In this document: positions 1,012 to 13,237 of the stretch, piece after piece
Layout: each line of letters begins with the position of its first letter
Position numbering within the stretch: position 1 is the first letter of the stretch
Source: Sporosarcina sp. Marseille-Q4063
Lineage (GTDB): Bacteria > Bacillota > Bacilli > Bacillales_A > Planococcaceae
Reading direction: 5' to 3'
NCBI RefSeq assembly: GCF_018309085.1
Contig: NZ_CP070502.1
Coordinates: 248,001 to 312,000 of the forward strand
Length of the DNA: 64,000 nt
Translations under genes and position numbers: made by a program
Notes under the pieces: model-generated
The model's input: the letters and a program-made list of their open reading frames with translations, nothing else
Databases searched by the model: none
What the model was told of the DNA's origin: nothing

Positions 1012-1069
1012 ATGACTTGAAAGCATAGATTTTTAATATAGTGAAAACTGAATAATTGCGAATGATTGT

Positions 1070-1265
1070 ATGAGGAGAGAACGCTGATGCGTCGCCGAAG
1101 GAGCAAGTAACGATTGTTATGAATCTCTCAGGCAAAAAGACTCATGCAGGACGCATCTCTGGAGAGTGTCAGCATCGACTGACCACCAACGAGGAAAGCC
1201 GCAAGGTCAAACTTTCAGGTACATGGACAGAGGTTCCCCGAATTGGGGAACCTCTGTCTTTTTTC
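1070..1265 (+). ncRNA. tandem glycine riboswitch with expression-platform terminator
   Basis: Two glycine aptamers in series are visible. Aptamer 1 (about 1072-1145) has GGAGAGA, the GCCGAAGGAGCAA block and AATCTCTCAGGCAAAA. Aptamer 2 (about 1148-1232) has CTCTGGAGAGT, GGAAAGCCGCAAGG and CTTTCAGGTAC. They are followed by a GC-rich hairpin (agaggttccccg / cggggaacctct, 1230-1257) and a T run, which forms the terminator. Glycine binding in this family usually favours antitermination, switching on glycine cleavage when glycine is abundant. The gene immediately downstream is gcvT, which matches. A long open frame that reads through this RNA into gcvT is not the real gene start. Confidence 0.95.
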
Positions 1266-8435: not shown

Positions 8436-9227
8436 ATGGTTATTGCTTCAAAGCACCAAGAACCAGTTCTGGATAAGAAACAATTAAACAAAGATATCGC
8501 AGAATTCCCGCAAGTGCATCCAATAACAGAAGACATGCACATCGAACACAAAGGAGTGTCGAGACTCGTAATGATTGATCGGTATTCATTTAAGGATACT
8601 GAAAAGAAAACGTTGAAAGTTGGCGATTTCGTAGTTTTAACAGTGAAAGAAGATCCGAAGTTCCCAGCACGCGGACTCGGATACATTACCGCACTTGATG
8701 AGAAAAATGGACAAGCTGACATTTGGATTGAAAAGGATTATCGCTCAGCGATTGACGACCCTGAAGAACAAGAAGTTGGTGTAATAACGCGACCGATCGA
8801 AGTGATTGAAAAGCCGCTTGAAGTATTCTACGAACAAGTTGCCAAACGTAACGCGACTGGCCTTGCATCTGTGGAGACGACGGAAGAAAAACGAAAGAAG
8901 TCGTTTGAAGGCTTTTACAAACAACTTTCGTCATTGAACTTCATTCCAGCGGGACGAGTCCTATACGGAGCCGGCGCAGGAACGGATGTAACGTACTTTA
9001 ATTGTTACGTTATGCCTTTTGTTGCTGATTCACGTGAGGGTATCTCAGACCACCGTAAGCAAGTAATGGAAATCATGAGCCGCGGCGGCGGTGTCGGAAC
9101 GAATGGTTCAACGCTACGACCGCGTAACACACTTGCAAGAGGCGTGAACGGTAAATCATCAGGTTCTGTTTCTTGGCTCGATGACATCGCGAAATTGACG
9201 CATCTTGTCGAACAAGGCGGATCCCGT
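8436..9227 (+). CDS. nrdJ: nrdJ exon 1
   Basis: Exon 1 encodes 264 residues: the N-terminal region and the first part of the alpha/beta barrel (LHVE-type GGGVGTNGSTLRPR loop). It ends with codon CGT (Arg) at 9225-9227, in the context EQGGSR. The next three bases are TAA, so unspliced RNA terminates here. The last seven exon bases (ATCCCGT) pair with the intron guide GCGGGAT at 9240-9246, with a terminal U·G pair. Confidence 0.9.
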
Positions 9228-12200
9228 TAACTTAACACGGCGGGATTAAAATCCTGTGAATTGCTGGAACACCCTTAGAGCCCTATTTACCACAACGTGA
9301 CCGGTGACGGTGAGCGTGAAGGTTTGAAAAAAATATGGATTGGGCAATCAGCAGCGAAGGGTCTTTGGAAACAAAGATCAACGTTCAACGACTATTGAAC
9401 CTTCCTAAAGTTTTAAAATTCATTCATACGACTGGACGATTAATAATTTGGAAGCAAAGGAAGAAGTAAACCATAGCAAGCGGCAACGCCGTTATGGGGC
9501 GCAGGACAAAGAAGAATTTATATTTACGACTAAACGAGATATAAAATTAAATCGTAAATATAAGATTTTTTCATCTTTGATGAGATAGTCTGATCTCATG
9601 TGAAAGCATGAGAGTTGGGCAGAAATGACCCAGCCCTCTCAAATTGAGAGAGTAACAATTAGCGTGGAGCACAAATGATCATGCTGGCGGATTAAACAAT
9701 GCTAGTCCGCGTCGTTCAGACAATAGACGACTAGAAAATCGGGTGAATTGCGAAGAACTCCTTAGAGACCATTAAGCTACAACGTGACTGGAAACGGTGA
9801 GCGTGAATGCTGAAAAATTAATGGTATTGGACAATCCGCAGCCAAGCGCCGTACAGGCGAAGGTCCAACGACTAACGAAAACATTCATCATGAATGGAAG
9901 TAGAGTAGGGAAGAACTAGTACTTTCCGAAGCGCCCGGCCCCTAACAGATTATGCTGAGGGTGATGATATAGTCTACTCCGTCTGCATATAGCAGAGAAA
10001 TATCCTGAAAAGGACGGTATTGAGGTGGCACCCTGACATTCTTGAGTTCATCATTTCAAAAATGCAGAATCCAAGAATTCTCCGTTATCTTCTAGAACAC
10101 ACGGAAGATGAACTGATTAAAAAACTAGCAAATGAAAAGCTTAAATTCAAACCGTTAACAGCCCAGGAAGATGCGATGTATCAAAGCATCCTGAACTACC
10201 GTAATATCCCAGGATTAGGCGGCTTTAGCGAAGAGATTATGAAAGACGCTGAAACGAAATTACGCGACGGTGGAACGTATTCCGTACATAATCCTGAATT
10301 CCTCACAGGCGCAAACATCTCAGTTACGCTCACAGATGATTTCATGAAAGCTGTCGAGGAAGATGCAGATTATGACCTAAGATTCCCAGCAGTCGAGAAG
10401 TACTCTCCGGAAGAAATGGCATTCTATAACGAAAAGTGGCATGAAATCGGAGATGTTCGTGAATGGGAACGACAAGGATTCGGCGTACGTGTTTACAGAA
10501 CGATTAAAGCACGAGCACTATGGGATCTAATAAATATTTGCGCAACGTATTCTGCTGAACCAGGCATATTCTTCATTGACAATGCCAACAGCGAAACAAA
10601 CGCAAAAGCATACGGCCAGCAAGTCGTAGCAACAAACCCGTGTGGTGAAGTTCGCCTCACGTTAAAAATTGCGGGATGAAGCGGGAAAGCTGAGATATAG
10701 TATAATTAGCAAATTATACTTGCCAATCCGAACCGAAGGCTGAAGGTCAAGCTTCAGTCAGGGGCAACGCATACCTAGTGATCCTGTTTTCGATAGGTTG
10801 AAAACAGACTATAATCTAGGCACGAGACCGCAACACTATAAAATATAGTGAAAATGTATGCTGAACTTACAGAAATTGGAACTGTAAGAACTAAGTGGAT
10901 AAAAAGCCCTTAGGATAACAACTGGAACAACCATTAGCACCATATTCGGTTTGTAACCTTGCTGCAGTAAACCTTGCTGAAGTAGCTGATAAAGAAACAA
11001 AAACAGTGAACTATGAAAAACTAAAAGAAATCGTGCAAGTCGGTGTGCGTATGCAAGACAACGTCATCGATGCAACACCATATTTCCTTGAAGAAAACGA
11101 AAAACAAGCACTCGGAGAACGCCGTGTTGGACTTGGCGTCATGGGGCTTGCTGACCTTCTAATCTACTGTGAGAAAGAATACGGTTCAGAAGAAGGCAAT
11201 CTACTCGTCGATAAAGTCTTTGAAACGATTGCAACGACGGCATATCGTGAATCTGTGGAACTTGCGAAAGAGAAGGGAAGCTTCCCGTTCCTCATCGGCA
11301 AAACAGATGAAGAAACAAAAGCGCTACGAAATGCATTTATCAACACAGGATTCATGAAAAAAATGCCTGAAGATATCCGTGAATCAATCCTGGAACACGG
11401 AATCAGAAACTCTCATTTATTAACTGTTGCTCCAACGGGTAAATGAATTGCCCCCGGTGCAAGTAATTGCATCGTGTAAATTAGGCTGTATGCGGGAAAC
11501 TCTGAGTATCCTTTTGTACCTGTACATTGCCAAGTACGCAAAGGTAAAAATCAAAAGGTGCAGACAATCCGCAGGGAAGTCGTGGCTGACCCCTCAACGA
11601 CTAAACGCCTGACAACCGAATTTTTCTTTGTCGATTACTTTGAAAGAAGTGATTTGCTTGGAGAAAAAATGTTTGAATTGCTCAATCATTATTAAAGTGA
11701 GACCTAGCCACTTTGAAAGAAAGAAATATTGCTCGAGAAAGTGTAAAGGTGAATATCAATCGAACCATTCACCAATAAATCAACATCTTAGTAGGAAACA
11801 GGAAGTACCATGCAGCTATTGCAAGAAAATAATTCTAAGAAAAAGATGCGACATTAATAAATATGCTAATCTTTTTTGTAATAGGGAATGCAATACACTT
11901 TTTAAAAAAGAAGTTGTACCTCCGGGACCGAAAAGAGAGCGAATCACACTTGTTTGCCAAGAGTGTAAAACTCCATTTGAAGTAATTAAGAGTAGAAAAA
12001 ATGCGAAGTTTTGCAATAAAATTTGCTTAGGACAGGCAAATGGTAGACGGGCAAAAGTAATGTTATCGAGACAAGTAACAGTTAATTGTAGTCGCTGTAA
12101 TGAACCATTCAATAAAAAGCCAAGTGGTTTGAGAACATTAAATTTCTGTACTGTAAATTGTATGGGAACCTATTACTCCGAGAAACAATTATTTTCAGGT

Positions 12201-13177
12201 GAAAATAGTGGAACTTGGAATGGTGGAAAAATCACTTATTACGGGCCTAATTGGTTAGCACAACGAAGAGCTGCAAGAAAACGTGATAATTTTACTTGTC
12301 AAAGATGTGGCATAGGGGAACCCGAGTACGGACAAGAATTATCAGTCCATCATTTGATTCCGTTTGCAATAAATAATGATTACCAAGTCGCAAATGAATT
12401 GATTAATTTGTTAAGTGTTTGCGAACCCTGTCATCGTATTATTCATTCTGGTGACAACCACCCAAGCAAGTTCAACAATTTTTCGGTTGATGATATAGTC
12501 TGACCCATATGGCGACATATGGAGCGGGTACTAATAATCCCGCCCTCTTAAAAGTTAAGAGAGTAACAAAAGTGAGTACTGGAACAATGGTCGGAGTTTC
12601 TACAGGATTAGAACCATATTTCTCCTTTACGTATTACCGCAGTGGACGCCTTGGTCGTTTTATCGAAGTGAAAGCTGAAATTGTAGAGGAATATTTAAGT
12701 CGTAACCCTGAAGCAGATCCGGATAATTTACCTGAGTGGTTTATTTCTTCGATGAGTCTTGCACCTGAAGCGCATGCTGATGTACAGTGCATCATTCAAC
12801 GTTGGATTGACAGCTCTATTTCCAAAACGGTGAACGCACCAAGAGGTTACACGGTTGAACAAGTAGAAAGCGTATATGAGCGTTTATACAAAGGCGGAGC
12901 AAAAGGCGGTACTGTTTATGTAGATGGTAGCCGTGATTCCCAAGTGTTGACGCTAAAAGCAGAAGAAAATGAAATTGATTCGGATTATGTTGAAGAAGTG
13001 ATCGAGAAGCGACCAATCATGCTTGTGGACACGATTCAAGATATACGTTCAACGAATGTAACTATTGGTTCTGAAGTAGGCAACACATGCCCGGTTTGTC
13101 GCCAAGGAACTGTCCAGGAAATGGGCGGTTGCAACACTTGTACAAACTGTAACGCACAATTAAAATGCGGATTATAA
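8436..13177 (+). CDS. nrdJ: adenosylcobalamin-dependent (class II) ribonucleoside-diphosphate reductase NrdJ, interrupted by four group I introns
   Basis: Reduces ribonucleotides to deoxyribonucleotides using a cobalamin-generated thiyl radical. The start is ATG 8436, set by AAAGGAGG at 8419-8426. The coding sequence is split: exons 8436-9227, 9663-9692, 10026-10646, 10925-11440 and 12575-13177, joined in phase 0, give 853 residues, normal for bacillar NrdJ. The joined protein restores conserved motifs that are broken in the raw sequence: GGSR+RGAQM, LAD+WHPDI, NPCG+E and PTG+STGTMVG. The thiyl Cys is in NPCGE. The C-terminus has CPVC and CTNC pairs, acting as zinc or redox site. Without splicing, stop codons end translation shortly after exon 1. 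Confidence 0.93.
9228..9662 (+). ncRNA. group I intron 1 of nrdJ (435 nt)
   Basis: The core elements appear in order: P-like AATTGCTGGAA (9259-9269), Q-like CAATCAGCAGC (9345-9355), R GTTCAACGACTA (9383-9394) and S GATGAGATAGTC (9579-9590). The P7 helix is GACTA (9390-9394) with TAGTC (9586-9590). P1 pairs exon 1 ATCCCGU with GCGGGAU (9240-9246). P10 pairs CACG (9236-9239) with the exon 2 start CGTG. The intron ends in G at 9662. P9-type hairpins lie at about 9594-9652. It has no open reading frame; the long P8 region (9400-9575) is AT-rich and may be the scar of a lost endonuclease gene. Confidence 0.9.
9663..9692 (+). CDS. nrdJ: nrdJ exon 2, a 30-nt micro-exon
   Basis: Thirty bases coding RGAQMIMLAD, ten residues that directly follow GGSR in class II reductases and precede WHPDI. 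Both boundaries agree with group I rules. The base before it is G (9662), and the exon ends with U (GAT, 9690-9692), which pairs as U·G with G9705 of intron 2 (GCGGAU with GUCCGC). It is the only sequence between two complete intron cores. Confidence 0.88.
9693..10025 (+). ncRNA. group I intron 2 of nrdJ (333 nt)
   Basis: The core elements are P AATTGCGAAGAA (9746-9757), Q CAATCCGCAGC (9832-9842), R GGTCCAACGACTA (9862-9874) and S GATGATATAGTC (9963-9974). P7 is GACTA (9870-9874) with TAGTC (9970-9974). P1 pairs exon 2 GCGGAU with GUCCGC (9705-9710). P10 pairs GCTA (9701-9704) with the exon 3 start TGGC. The intron ends in G at 10025. There is no open reading frame. Its P5-like region (ACAACGTGAC, ACGGTGAGCGTGAA) is nearly the same as in intron 1, so the two are close relatives. 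Confidence 0.9.
10026..10646 (+). CDS. nrdJ: nrdJ exon 3
   Basis: Exon 3 encodes 207 residues from WHPDILEF to VVATNPCG. The active-site Cys of NPCGE is the third codon from its end, and the Glu lies in exon 4. The exon ends with GGT at 10644-10646. A frame that begins at ATG 10020 inside intron 2 is only read-through from the intron. Confidence 0.9.
10647..10924 (+). ncRNA. group I intron 3 of nrdJ (278 nt, compact, divergent core)
   Basis: Splice-site logic is strong. P1 pairs CGUGUGGU of exon 3 with GCCTCACG (10654-10661, one U·U mismatch), and P10 is a perfect GTTC (10650-10653) with GAAC of exon 4. The intron ends in G at 10924. Core elements are P AATTGCGGGA (10667-10676), Q CAATCCGAACC (10724-10734), a P6 hairpin CTGAAG/CTTCAG, and P7 GCATA (10769-10773) with TATGC (10858-10862). 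The R and S sequences differ from those of the other three introns, so it probably belongs to another subgroup. It has no open reading frame. Confidence 0.8.
10925..11440 (+). CDS. nrdJ: nrdJ exon 4
   Basis: Exon 4 encodes 172 residues, from EQPLAPYSVCNLAAVNLAE (completing NPCGE) to NSHLLTVAPTG. It ends at GGT 11438-11440. The frame continues AAA TGA into the intron, so unspliced RNA terminates after one extra codon. Confidence 0.9.
11441..12574 (+). ncRNA. group I intron 4 of nrdJ (1134 nt), encoding an HNH endonuclease
   Basis: The core elements are P TGCGGGAAAC (11491-11500), Q CAATCCGCAG (11565-11574), R CTCAACGACTA (11593-11603) and S GATGATATAGTC (12489-12500). P7 is GACTA (11599-11603) with TAGTC (12496-12500). 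The P1 guide GCCC pairs with exon GGGU with a terminal U·G. P10 is short (AUU with AGU). The intron ends in G at 12574, before AGT ACT GGA (STG). The endonuclease gene fills the P8 loop, and its last codons are the S element itself. The S element is identical in 12 bases to that of intron 2. Confidence 0.9.
11658..12503 (+). CDS. intron-encoded HNH homing endonuclease with four zinc fingers
   Basis: Located in the P8 loop of intron 4. The likely start is TTG 11658, behind AAAGAAG; TTG 11628 and GTG 11652 are alternatives. From 11658 it has 281 residues. Four successive Cys-x2-Cys units (CLNC, CSYC, CQEC, CSRC), each followed by a second Cys pair of the form (F/Y)C-x3-C, form tandem zinc fingers over about residues 5-170. 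An NxxW-type segment (SGTWNGGKITYYGPNW) follows, and then the HNH core: CQRC, ELSVHHLIPF, LINLLSVCEPCHRIIH. Such enzymes cut intron-less alleles and spread the intron. The stop codon immediately follows the P7 strand, so the protein's last residues (DDIV) are encoded by catalytic RNA sequence. Confidence 0.93.
   Translation: MEKKCLNCSIIIKVRPSHFERKKYCSRKCKGEYQSNHSPINQHLSRKQEVPCSYCKKIILRKRCDINKYANLFCNRECNTLFKKEVVPPGPKRERITLVCQECKTPFEVIKSRKNAKFCNKICLGQANGRRAKVMLSRQVTVNCSRCNEPFNKKPSGLRTLNFCTVNCMGTYYSEKQLFSGENSGTWNGGKITYYGPNWLAQRRAARKRDNFTCQRCGIGEPEYGQELSVHHLIPFAINNDYQVANELINLLSVCEPCHRIIHSGDNHPSKFNNFSVDDIV
12575..13177 (+). CDS. nrdJ: nrdJ exon 5
   Basis: Exon 5 encodes the last 200 residues, starting STGTMVGVSTGLEPYFSF, which completes the PTGSTG motif of the substrate-binding loop. 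The C-terminus carries CPVC and CTNC plus a final Cys, typical of the zinc or redox tail of bacillar NrdJ. A frame beginning at ATG 12509 is intron read-through. Confidence 0.92.
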   Translation, partial: STGTMVGVSTGLEPYFSFTYYRSGRLGRFIEVKAEIVEEYLSRNPEADPDNLPEWFISSMSLAPEAHADVQCIIQRWIDSSISKTVNAPRGYTVEQVESVYERLYKGGAKGGTVYVDGSRDSQVLTLKAEENEIDSDYVEEVIEKRPIMLVDTIQDIRSTNVTIGSEVGNTCPVCRQGTVQEMGGCNTCTNCNAQLKCGL

Positions 13178-13186
13178 TATAAAAAA

Positions 13187-13233
13187 GAAAACTGGCCTCC
13201 ATTCTCATTTCGAGAAAGGAGGCCAGTTTTTCA
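13187..13233. terminator. bidirectional terminator between nrdJ and yqhQ
   Basis: The inverted repeat aactggcctcc / ggaggccagtt has A-rich sequence on the left and a T5 run on the right. It ends nrdJ and the convergent yqhQ. Confidence 0.9.
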
Positions 13234-13237
13234 TTAT

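What the first reader, a model, noticed from the sequence alone, without database searches (positions are those of the whole stretch)
8436..13177. One chromosomal nrdJ gene carries four separate group I introns
I located all eight splice junctions. Each 5' exon ends in U and pairs U·G in P1, each intron ends in G, and joining the exons restores conserved class II reductase motifs with no frameshift (853 residues). Seen directly: three introns (1, 2, 4) have a GACTA/TAGTC P7 and CAACGACTA-type R elements, and P10 pairings are perfect for introns 1 and 3. Reductase genes are known hosts of phage and bacterial introns, but four in one B12-dependent reductase gene is unusual. Genome annotation tools would call the pieces as fragments or pseudogenes.
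Basis: partly seen in the sequence, partly recalled or inferred. Interest (0 to 1): 0.9.

Follow-up and report, generated by a model that had tools for sequence, protein, structure and literature searches.

The report
Four self-splicing introns in one gene
A bacterial gene for a vitamin-B12-dependent enzyme that makes DNA building blocks is cut into five pieces by four introns of a self-splicing kind, and relatives carry different subsets at the same few spots, which makes the gene a good natural test bed for how such introns come and go.

Summary
Confirmed. In a Sporosarcina-type chromosome the class II (B12-dependent) ribonucleotide reductase gene nrdJ (8436-13177) is split by four introns. 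The proposed junctions restore an 853-residue frame that matches intronless relatives. Introns 1, 2 and 4 match Rfam's group I model. Intron 3 does not, nor did the other introns tested at its site; comparative folding shows it is still a group I intron, of IA type (P7.1/P7.2; compensatory changes in P3). All four sites recur: 47 of 110 distinct nrdJ genes carry group I introns at six sites. The window's four is the most seen; its two nearest relatives carry subsets (264+274+481; 274+653). At five sites the last exon base is U in 72 of 72 occupied but 123 of 450 empty alleles. Endonuclease ORFs differ by site (LAGLIDADG, HNH, DUF559/Vsr-like); in the window only intron 4 keeps one. The genome also has class I reductase genes. 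Splicing is inferred. Group I introns in reductase genes are well known, so this is a rich new member of a known kind.

The parts
8436..9227 (+). nrdJ exon 1 (residues 1-264, ends GGSR)
9228..9662 (+). intron 1 (site 264), group I, 435 nt; endonuclease gene absent, unlike the 1168-nt copy in nearest relative L145
   Evidence: RF00028 78.1 bits at 9156-9612; 97% identical to L145 over 435 aligned bases, with L145's LAGLIDADG ORF missing
9390..9394 (+). intron 1 P7 5' strand GACTA (3' strand TAGTC 9587-9591)
   Evidence: seen, RF00028 alignment
9663..9692 (+). nrdJ exon 2, a 30-base mini-exon coding RGAQMIMLAD
9693..10025 (+). intron 2 (site 274), group I, 333 nt, no ORF; insert between P7 and P3 folds as two hairpins (IA-like)
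   Evidence: RF00028 57.3 bits at 9683-9992; fold, z only -1.56
9870..9874 (+). intron 2 P7 5' strand GACTA (3' strand TAGTC 9970-9974)
   Evidence: seen, RF00028 alignment
10026..10646 (+). nrdJ exon 3 (residues 275-481, ends NPCG)
10647..10924 (+). intron 3 (site 481), group I of IA type, 278 nt, no ORF; missed by RF00028
   Evidence: model R1 187.5 bits at 10663-10863, a training sequence
10669..10674 (+). intron 3 P3 5' strand TTGCGG (3' strand CCGCAA 10828-10833)
   Evidence: invariant in 24; compensatory changes in distant relatives
10769..10773 (+). intron 3 P7 5' strand GCATA (3' strand TATGC 10857-10861)
   Evidence: invariant in 24; A-U to G-C on both sides in phage locus L229
10774..10778 (+). 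intron 3 P7.1 5' strand CCTAG (3' strand CTAGG 10816-10820), P7.2 hairpin inside
   Evidence: 4 of 5 P7.1 pairs change on both sides among relatives
10925..11440 (+). nrdJ exon 4 (residues 482-653, ends APTG)
11441..12574 (+). intron 4 (site 653), group I, 1134 nt with endonuclease ORF; no insert between P7 and P3 in the Rfam alignment
   Evidence: RF00028 halves 44.7 and 32.5 bits; four short copies at the same site score 77.9-89.3 bits
11599..11603 (+). intron 4 P7 5' strand GACTA (3' strand TAGTC 12497-12501)
   Evidence: seen, RF00028 alignments
11628..12503 (+). HNH endonuclease ORF in intron 4 (291 aa from TTG; start codon uncertain); its last codons overlap the P7 3' strand
   Evidence: PF01844 E 1.8e-06, 28.5 bits
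12575..13177 (+). nrdJ exon 5 (residues 654-853 and stop)

Best explanation
The window carries one intact class II ribonucleotide reductase gene, nrdJ, interrupted by four group I ribozymes. Each ribozyme pairs the end of its upstream exon with its own 5' part (P1, with a U.G pair at the cut), uses guanosine bound in P7 to cut there, then joins the exons after the intron's last G; four such reactions give an mRNA for an 853-residue enzyme. In-frame stops at the first, first, eleventh and second codon after the four junctions would keep ribosomes out of the folding cores. The introns are or were mobile: endonucleases encoded by copies at each site would cut intronless alleles so that the intron is copied in, and the gene family shows patchy occupancy and endonuclease-free copies at a few fixed sites. 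Shown: reading frame, sites, group I fold, patchy occupancy, endonuclease ORFs. Inferred: splicing and its efficiency, and homing.
For: Frame restoration and match to empty alleles at all four sites. Rfam group I hits on introns 1, 2 and 4 and on relatives at sites 264, 266, 274 and 653. Intron 3: 44-pair structure over 24 distinct sequences, 99.0% of cells paired, 15 pairs with change on both sides against 7.0 in shuffles (0 of 500 as high) and at most 6 in slid controls; P3 compensatory changes in L220, L221, L229 and L230 although P3 was not in the model; a distant hit of model R1 (38.8 bits) overlaps an RF00028 hit of 71.6 bits in L243. Recurrent sites. -1 base U in 72 of 72 occupied and 123 of 450 empty alleles over five sites; last intron base G in 71 of 72. 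Stops: first in-frame codon in 9 of 9 distinct site-264 and 13 of 13 site-274 introns, second codon in 7 of 9 at 653, eleventh in 24 of 26 at 481. Endonuclease ORFs. Patchy occupancy on the gene tree.
Against: No RNA data. Intron 3 fails the public group I model. The structure counted was derived from the same sequences, P3, P4 and P7 never vary there, and the rows are related. In one search, L232 has four unpaired P3 cells, L230 one, L228 one plus two gaps, L239 only gaps; six of 18 rows have unpaired or gapped P7 cells, where an ORF probably splits the match. At site 481 stops come even earlier in the +1 frame (sixth codon in 24 of 26), so that stop is not special. Higher intron than exon identity may only reflect ribozyme constraint. 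U at -1 could partly come from exon co-conversion in homing or shared descent; the junction caller gave a small bonus to U and G ends.
Confidence: 0.92

Rival explanations
1. nrdJ is a decaying pseudogene: some introns no longer splice and the class I reductase does the work.
For: The genome also has class I large and small subunit genes (G000:C1:2798254-2801161); 18 of 67 other same-genus genomes gave no exon 5 match (one of them, G014, has the gene up to a contig end); intron 1 lacks the endonuclease gene its sister has.
Against: All exons are intact and in frame; exon 5 is 99% and 97% identical in protein to the two nearest relatives; U at -1 is kept. G030 shows what decay looks like: a fragment with 2 stops.
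Confidence: 0.06
2. The introns act as a regulated switch: incomplete splicing, or skipping of the in-frame 30-base exon, sets the amount or form of NrdJ.
For: Exon 2 is 30 bases and all exons are phase 0, so skipping would stay in frame. Exon skipping is in the title of a Twort reference; a temperature effect is reported for flagellin introns (passage).
Against: The combination is not conserved: sister L145 lacks intron 4 and L005 lacks introns 1 and 3. Skipping would remove ten residues that relatives share.
Confidence: 0.1
3. Intron 3 is not a group I intron but another insertion, such as an IStron remnant.
For: No RF00028 hit at the site-481 introns tested. IStron introns are of the same IA2 class (passages).
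Against: P1 and P10 by eye, P3 to P8 and P7.1/P7.2 by covariation or invariance, two hairpins after P7; relatives in phage genomes. ORFs were listed for the 13 distinct site-481 copies over 400 nt and three of them scanned with Pfam: HNH, LAGLIDADG, and one without a match; no transposase.
Confidence: 0.03

Closest known systems
[quoted passage not shown]
   Same: Several group I introns in one gene; nrdE introns near conserved reductase residues, one with an HNH endonuclease (passages of PMC3653736; reference titles)
   Different: Phage genes, two or three introns; here a bacterial chromosome, a class II enzyme and four
Brochothrix phage A9 nrdE
   Same: Four coding fragments separated by three introns and an intein-encoded homing endonuclease (passage of PMC3653736)
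   Different: Phage, class Ib; three introns
Bacillus chromosomal recA, nrdE, nrdF introns and cyanobacterial nrdE introns
   Same: Chromosomal genes of DNA metabolism with group I introns, some similar to phage introns (passages of PMC3984707)
   Different: The passages I read name no gene with four
IStrons and other IA2 introns of Firmicutes
   Same: P7.1 and P7.2 hairpins and extended domain 9 (passages of PMC4227781); intron 3 shows the first and part of the second
   Different: No transposase seen; intron 3 recurs at one nrdJ site
Flagellin-gene introns of thermophilic Bacillus/Geobacillus
   Same: Group I introns in a chromosomal Bacillota gene (passages)
   Different: Other gene; no such hit in the window genome

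Membership tests
group I intron | U at the end of the 5' exon, paired with G in P1 | tested here: met
   U in all four and in 72 of 72 occupied alleles; the G partner was read by eye
group I intron | terminal G of the intron | tested here: met
   all four; 71 of 72
group I intron | P3-P8 catalytic core with P7 | tested here: met
   introns 1, 2: RF00028 above cut-off; intron 4: two halves below cut-off, four short copies of the site above it; intron 3: comparative structure, RF00028 negative
group I intron | self-splicing with exogenous guanosine | not testable with these tools
   needs RNA
group I subgroup IA2 (intron 3) | P7.1 and P7.2 hairpins in domain 7 | tested here: met
   4 of 5 and 4 of 7 pairs with change on both sides
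group I subgroup IA2 (intron 3) | extended domain 9 (P9.0, P9.1, P9.2) | tested here: inconclusive
   two hairpins after P7 (z -3.28); P9.0 not tested
IStron | transposase ORF joined to the intron | tested here: not met
   no ORF in window intron 3 (278 nt; one search lists no ORF of 80 aa lying within it); 3 of 13 ORF-bearing copies scanned, none transposase
class II ribonucleotide reductase (NrdJ) | match to the B12-dependent reductase family along its length | tested here: met
   NF005991 in collinear pieces; each piece alone is below the whole-protein cut-off of 854 bits, and the joined protein was not scanned
HNH homing endonuclease (intron 4 ORF) | HNH domain and location inside an intron | tested here: met
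   PF01844 28.5 bits over a 21.4 cut-off
HNH homing endonuclease (intron 4 ORF) | cuts the intronless allele at the insertion site | not testable with these tools
   needs enzyme assay

The most novel reading that the evidence does not exclude
nrdJ of the Sporosarcina group is a chromosomal intron hub: six phase-0 group I sites and, in one relative, two group II introns with reverse transcriptases, served by at least four kinds of intron ORF (LAGLIDADG, HNH, DUF559/Vsr-like, one without a Pfam match), with turnover fast enough that the nearest relatives differ. The window allele is the fullest state known to me, four group I introns in one chromosomal protein gene. With mostly intronless class I nrdE in the same genus as a control and with empty, occupied, endonuclease-bearing and endonuclease-free alleles, the whole homing cycle and its cost could be measured in one gene.
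Probability: 0.6. Interest if true: 0.62.

Novelty: new member of a known kind. Interest (0 to 1): 0.5.

Why it matters
[quoted passage not shown] Here one chromosomal gene carries four, and its relatives provide a replicated record of occupied, endonuclease-free and empty states at the same codons. It also shows that Rfam's group I model misses a whole site family (intron 3), so intron counts and gene calls in such genomes can be too low.

Tried and rejected
RF00028 as the only test of intron 3: negative in the window, in 5 of 5 further loci with that intron at E<=1, in 10 of 10 at the curated cut-off (L145, L150, L159, L160, L161, L171, L177, L180, L186, L191) and in L234, L236, L239 and L240 at E<=0.1, so I built an alignment and model instead. 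My first P7 for intron 3 had six pairs; the sixth base belongs to P7.1 (failed script), so P7 was set to five. Promoter and terminator scan: about as many sites as in shuffles. Intron identity above exon identity was considered as evidence of horizontal transfer and set aside, because ribozyme ends are constrained. An essential-gene argument was dropped when class I genes were found in the same genome. Phase 0: with 38.6% of T at codon position 3 the chance is about 0.02 for four sites, suggestive only. No protein structure, viral-contig, metagenome or large protein search was run.

Rows dropped or placed by hand: three loci (L148, L185, L193) were left out of the 110-gene count; L148 has a site-266 intron and was added by hand, L185 has two group II introns, L193 is a fragment. 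Four of 110 genes (L019, L021, L202, L204) are not in the tree. Introns of three genes at site 266 (L067/L184, L164, L197) were misplaced by the automatic caller and placed by motif; L158's two were first merged and then placed by motif. Empty alleles with another intron within six codons or more than 12 mismatches were left out, which does not cover site 265. Sampling: the 80 named loci are the best 80 of 554 by exon 5. The 60 loci hold all 49 same-genus hits plus G014, and ten other-genus loci chosen mostly for short open frames, so counts outside the genus are biased upward.
Full report
WHAT IS THERE. The window is bases 248001-312000 of a 3.98-Mb single-contig genome. The four long pieces match NCBIfam NF005991, vitamin B12-dependent ribonucleotide reductase, in collinear order, and Pfam reductase domains. 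Some relatives have the same gene as one unbroken 853-residue match 90% identical (L009, L011). The junctions fall at GGSR|RGAQ, MLAD|WHPD, NPCG|EQPL and APTG|STGT.

CHECK OF JUNCTIONS. The 15+15 bases flanking each junction were compared with alleles that lack an intron there: 101, 97, 84 and 101 empty alleles for sites 264, 274, 481 and 653, with best matches of 2, 1, 2 and 1 mismatches in 30 and medians of 7, 6, 6 and 7. The spliced product is fixed by this; the exact cut is unique at site 264 and one of 2, 4 and 2 equivalent offsets at the others, where the U and G rule chooses.

INTRONS 1, 2 AND 4. RF00028 hits introns 1 and 2 above its cut-off and intron 4 in two halves around its ORF. 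Of the six loci with site-653 introns, the four with short copies score 77.9-89.3 bits (L184, L180, L186, L201) and the two with a full ORF (L161, L166) have no hit there above the cut-off, so intron 4 looks like a normal group I intron whose score is cut by its endonuclease gene. Introns 1 and 2 have long inserts between P7 and P3 in the Rfam alignment; the intron 2 insert folds as two hairpins (z -1.56) and that of intron 1 folds better than most shuffles (z -2.29), as in IA introns. Intron 4 has no such insert.

INTRON 3. It has no RF00028 hit at E up to 1, and neither have the site-481 introns of L008, L056, L158, L172 and L204, the ten (at the curated cut-off) or those of L234, L236, L239 and L240. 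Yet DNA relatives of it occur in 26 of 201 genomes, the window's own included, 22 of them same-genus. I folded it by hand and tested the fold on 24 distinct cores: 44 pairs, 99.0% of cells paired; 15 pairs with changes on both sides (shuffle mean 7.0, 0 of 500 as high; slid controls at most 6). P6a, P7.1, P7.2 and P8 covary; P3, P4, P5, P6 and P7 never vary in that set. A covariance model built without P3 (R1) then found copies in 18 of 398 class-level genomes and in stretches of bajarodcaudo virus 1, Enterocloster phage CB457P1 and Peptoclostridium phage phiCDIF1296T (74.0, 105.3 and 64.8 bits), picked from 49 phage records with a blastn match at E<=0.1. In distant rows P3 shows changes on both sides in L220, L221, L229 and L230, and P7 in L229; L232 pairs poorly in P3, L228 and L230 in part, and six of 18 rows have unpaired or gapped P7 cells. 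The weakest R1 hits, in G318 (38.8 bits), include one that lies on an RF00028 hit of 71.6 bits (L243), a direct bridge to the known family. Helices P7.1 and P7.2 place intron 3 in the IA2 kind by the description in PMC4227781 (passages). In the own genome R1 hits only this intron.

THE GENE AS A HUB. After merging genes with identical exon 5 there are 110 distinct genes: 63 without, 28 with one, 13 with two, 5 with three and 1, the window, with four group I introns. Sites: 481 (26 genes), 266 (15), 274 (13), 264 (9), 653 (9), 265 (1). All were placed between codons. Among same-genus loci 33 of 48 mapped have at least one. Sites 266 and 481 are also occupied, and a site near 264, in more distant reductases 41-46% identical over their longer pieces (L236, L237; L233). 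The class I large-subunit gene matches its profile in one unbroken stretch in 41 of 43 same-genus genomes: G021 is split near the position equivalent to site 481 by an insert with an ORF, and G022 (83% complete, 9% contamination) is in pieces. One relative, G044, has two group II introns with reverse transcriptases in nrdJ.

TURNOVER. On a quick tree of an uninterrupted 621-base exon (106 genes) occupancy needs 8, 12, 8, 18 and 8 changes for 9, 15, 13, 24 and 9 occupied rows at 264, 266, 274, 481 and 653. The nearest kin of the window are L145 with 264, 274 and 481 and L005 with 274 and 653: each has a subset. Changes cannot tell gain from loss.

ENDONUCLEASES. One ORF of each type from copies over 400 nt was scanned (seven in all): site 264 LAGLIDADG; site 266 DUF559 with a sub-threshold Vsr match; site 274 HNH; site 653 (the window) HNH; site 481 three kinds in three loops: HNH in P5 (L180), LAGLIDADG in P9 (L006), and one in P8 without a Pfam hit (L023). 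In the window, intron 1 is the L145 copy minus its LAGLIDADG ORF (435 against 1168 nt, 97% identical); introns 2 and 3 have none; intron 4 has an HNH ORF of 291 codons. Related proteins are encoded in 102 phage records, mostly Staphylococcus (75) and haloarchaeal, all under 60% identity. Parts of introns 1, 2 and 4 resemble sequences in 239, 237 and 4 phage records at E<=1e-3.

SIGNS OF FUNCTION. The base before the intron is a degenerate third position. Over five sites it is U in 72 of 72 occupied alleles but in 123 of 450 empty ones, as expected if P1 needs a U.G pair; co-conversion and shared descent could contribute, and rows are not independent. In-frame stops come at once after the junction at sites 264 and 274, at the second codon in 7 of 9 at 653 and the eleventh in 24 of 26 at 481; at 266 they come at the fourth to twentieth codon. 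In the other two frames no copy at 264, 274 or 653 stops at the first codon, and stops mostly come later, but at 481 the +1 frame stops earlier than the exon's frame, so only the first three sites look special. PMC3984707 (passages) reports the view that such stops help intron folding.

HOST PHYSIOLOGY. The genome has class I large and small subunit genes at 2798254-2801161, and 18 of 67 other same-genus genomes gave no exon 5 match, some of them incomplete assemblies. nrdJ is therefore probably accessory, which may be why it tolerates introns (inference).

NOVELTY. Introns in reductase genes are well documented: over 100 group I introns curated in RNRdb, possibly some in nrdJ (passage of PMC2795772); two in Twort nrdE, three plus an intein element in Brochothrix phage A9 nrdE, and two split phage nrdJ genes (passages of PMC3653736). 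Trichodesmium's reductase gene with several group II introns and inteins is recalled, not read. In nine paper searches none of the listed titles is on multiple group I introns in nrdJ or on Sporosarcina introns; three lists were cut (20 of 110, 12 of 37, 10 of 17) and the library is open-access only, so this is weak evidence of absence. I file it as a new member of a known kind, exceptional in number and comparative richness.

Noticed in passing
L185 (G044:C1:954784-962583): nrdJ of a same-genus genome holds two 2.6-2.7 kb inserts with reverse transcriptase ORFs and Rfam group II intron hits, after about residues 460 and 483.
   Followed up: partly
L244 (G031:C1:848000-852500), L245 (G028:C42:130500-136000): Group I introns about 100 bases apart near the end of what looks by eye like a flagellin gene. 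Similarly spaced RF00028 pairs are in a number of other same-genus genomes; their genes were not checked. None in the window genome.
   Followed up: partly
L231 (G021:C4:67500-71500): Class I large-subunit gene split by an insert of about 1.1 kb near the position equivalent to nrdJ site 481; the insert holds a 242-codon frame that looks GIY-YIG-like by eye (motif recalled); RF00028 only 24 bits.
   Followed up: partly
G030:C1:1524517-1524735 (L193): Only a C-terminal nrdJ fragment with two stops: a decayed copy.
   Followed up: no
window 1062-1234: Tandem glycine riboswitch aptamers, ordinary.
   Followed up: no
window 13184-13235: Stem with T run just after nrdJ (seen), likely terminator; not in the scan's list, probably because its loop is long.
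   Followed up: no
site-481 introns, e.g. L023, L180, L006: Three different ORF kinds sit in three different loops (P8, P5, P9) of the same ribozyme family at one insertion site.
   Followed up: partly
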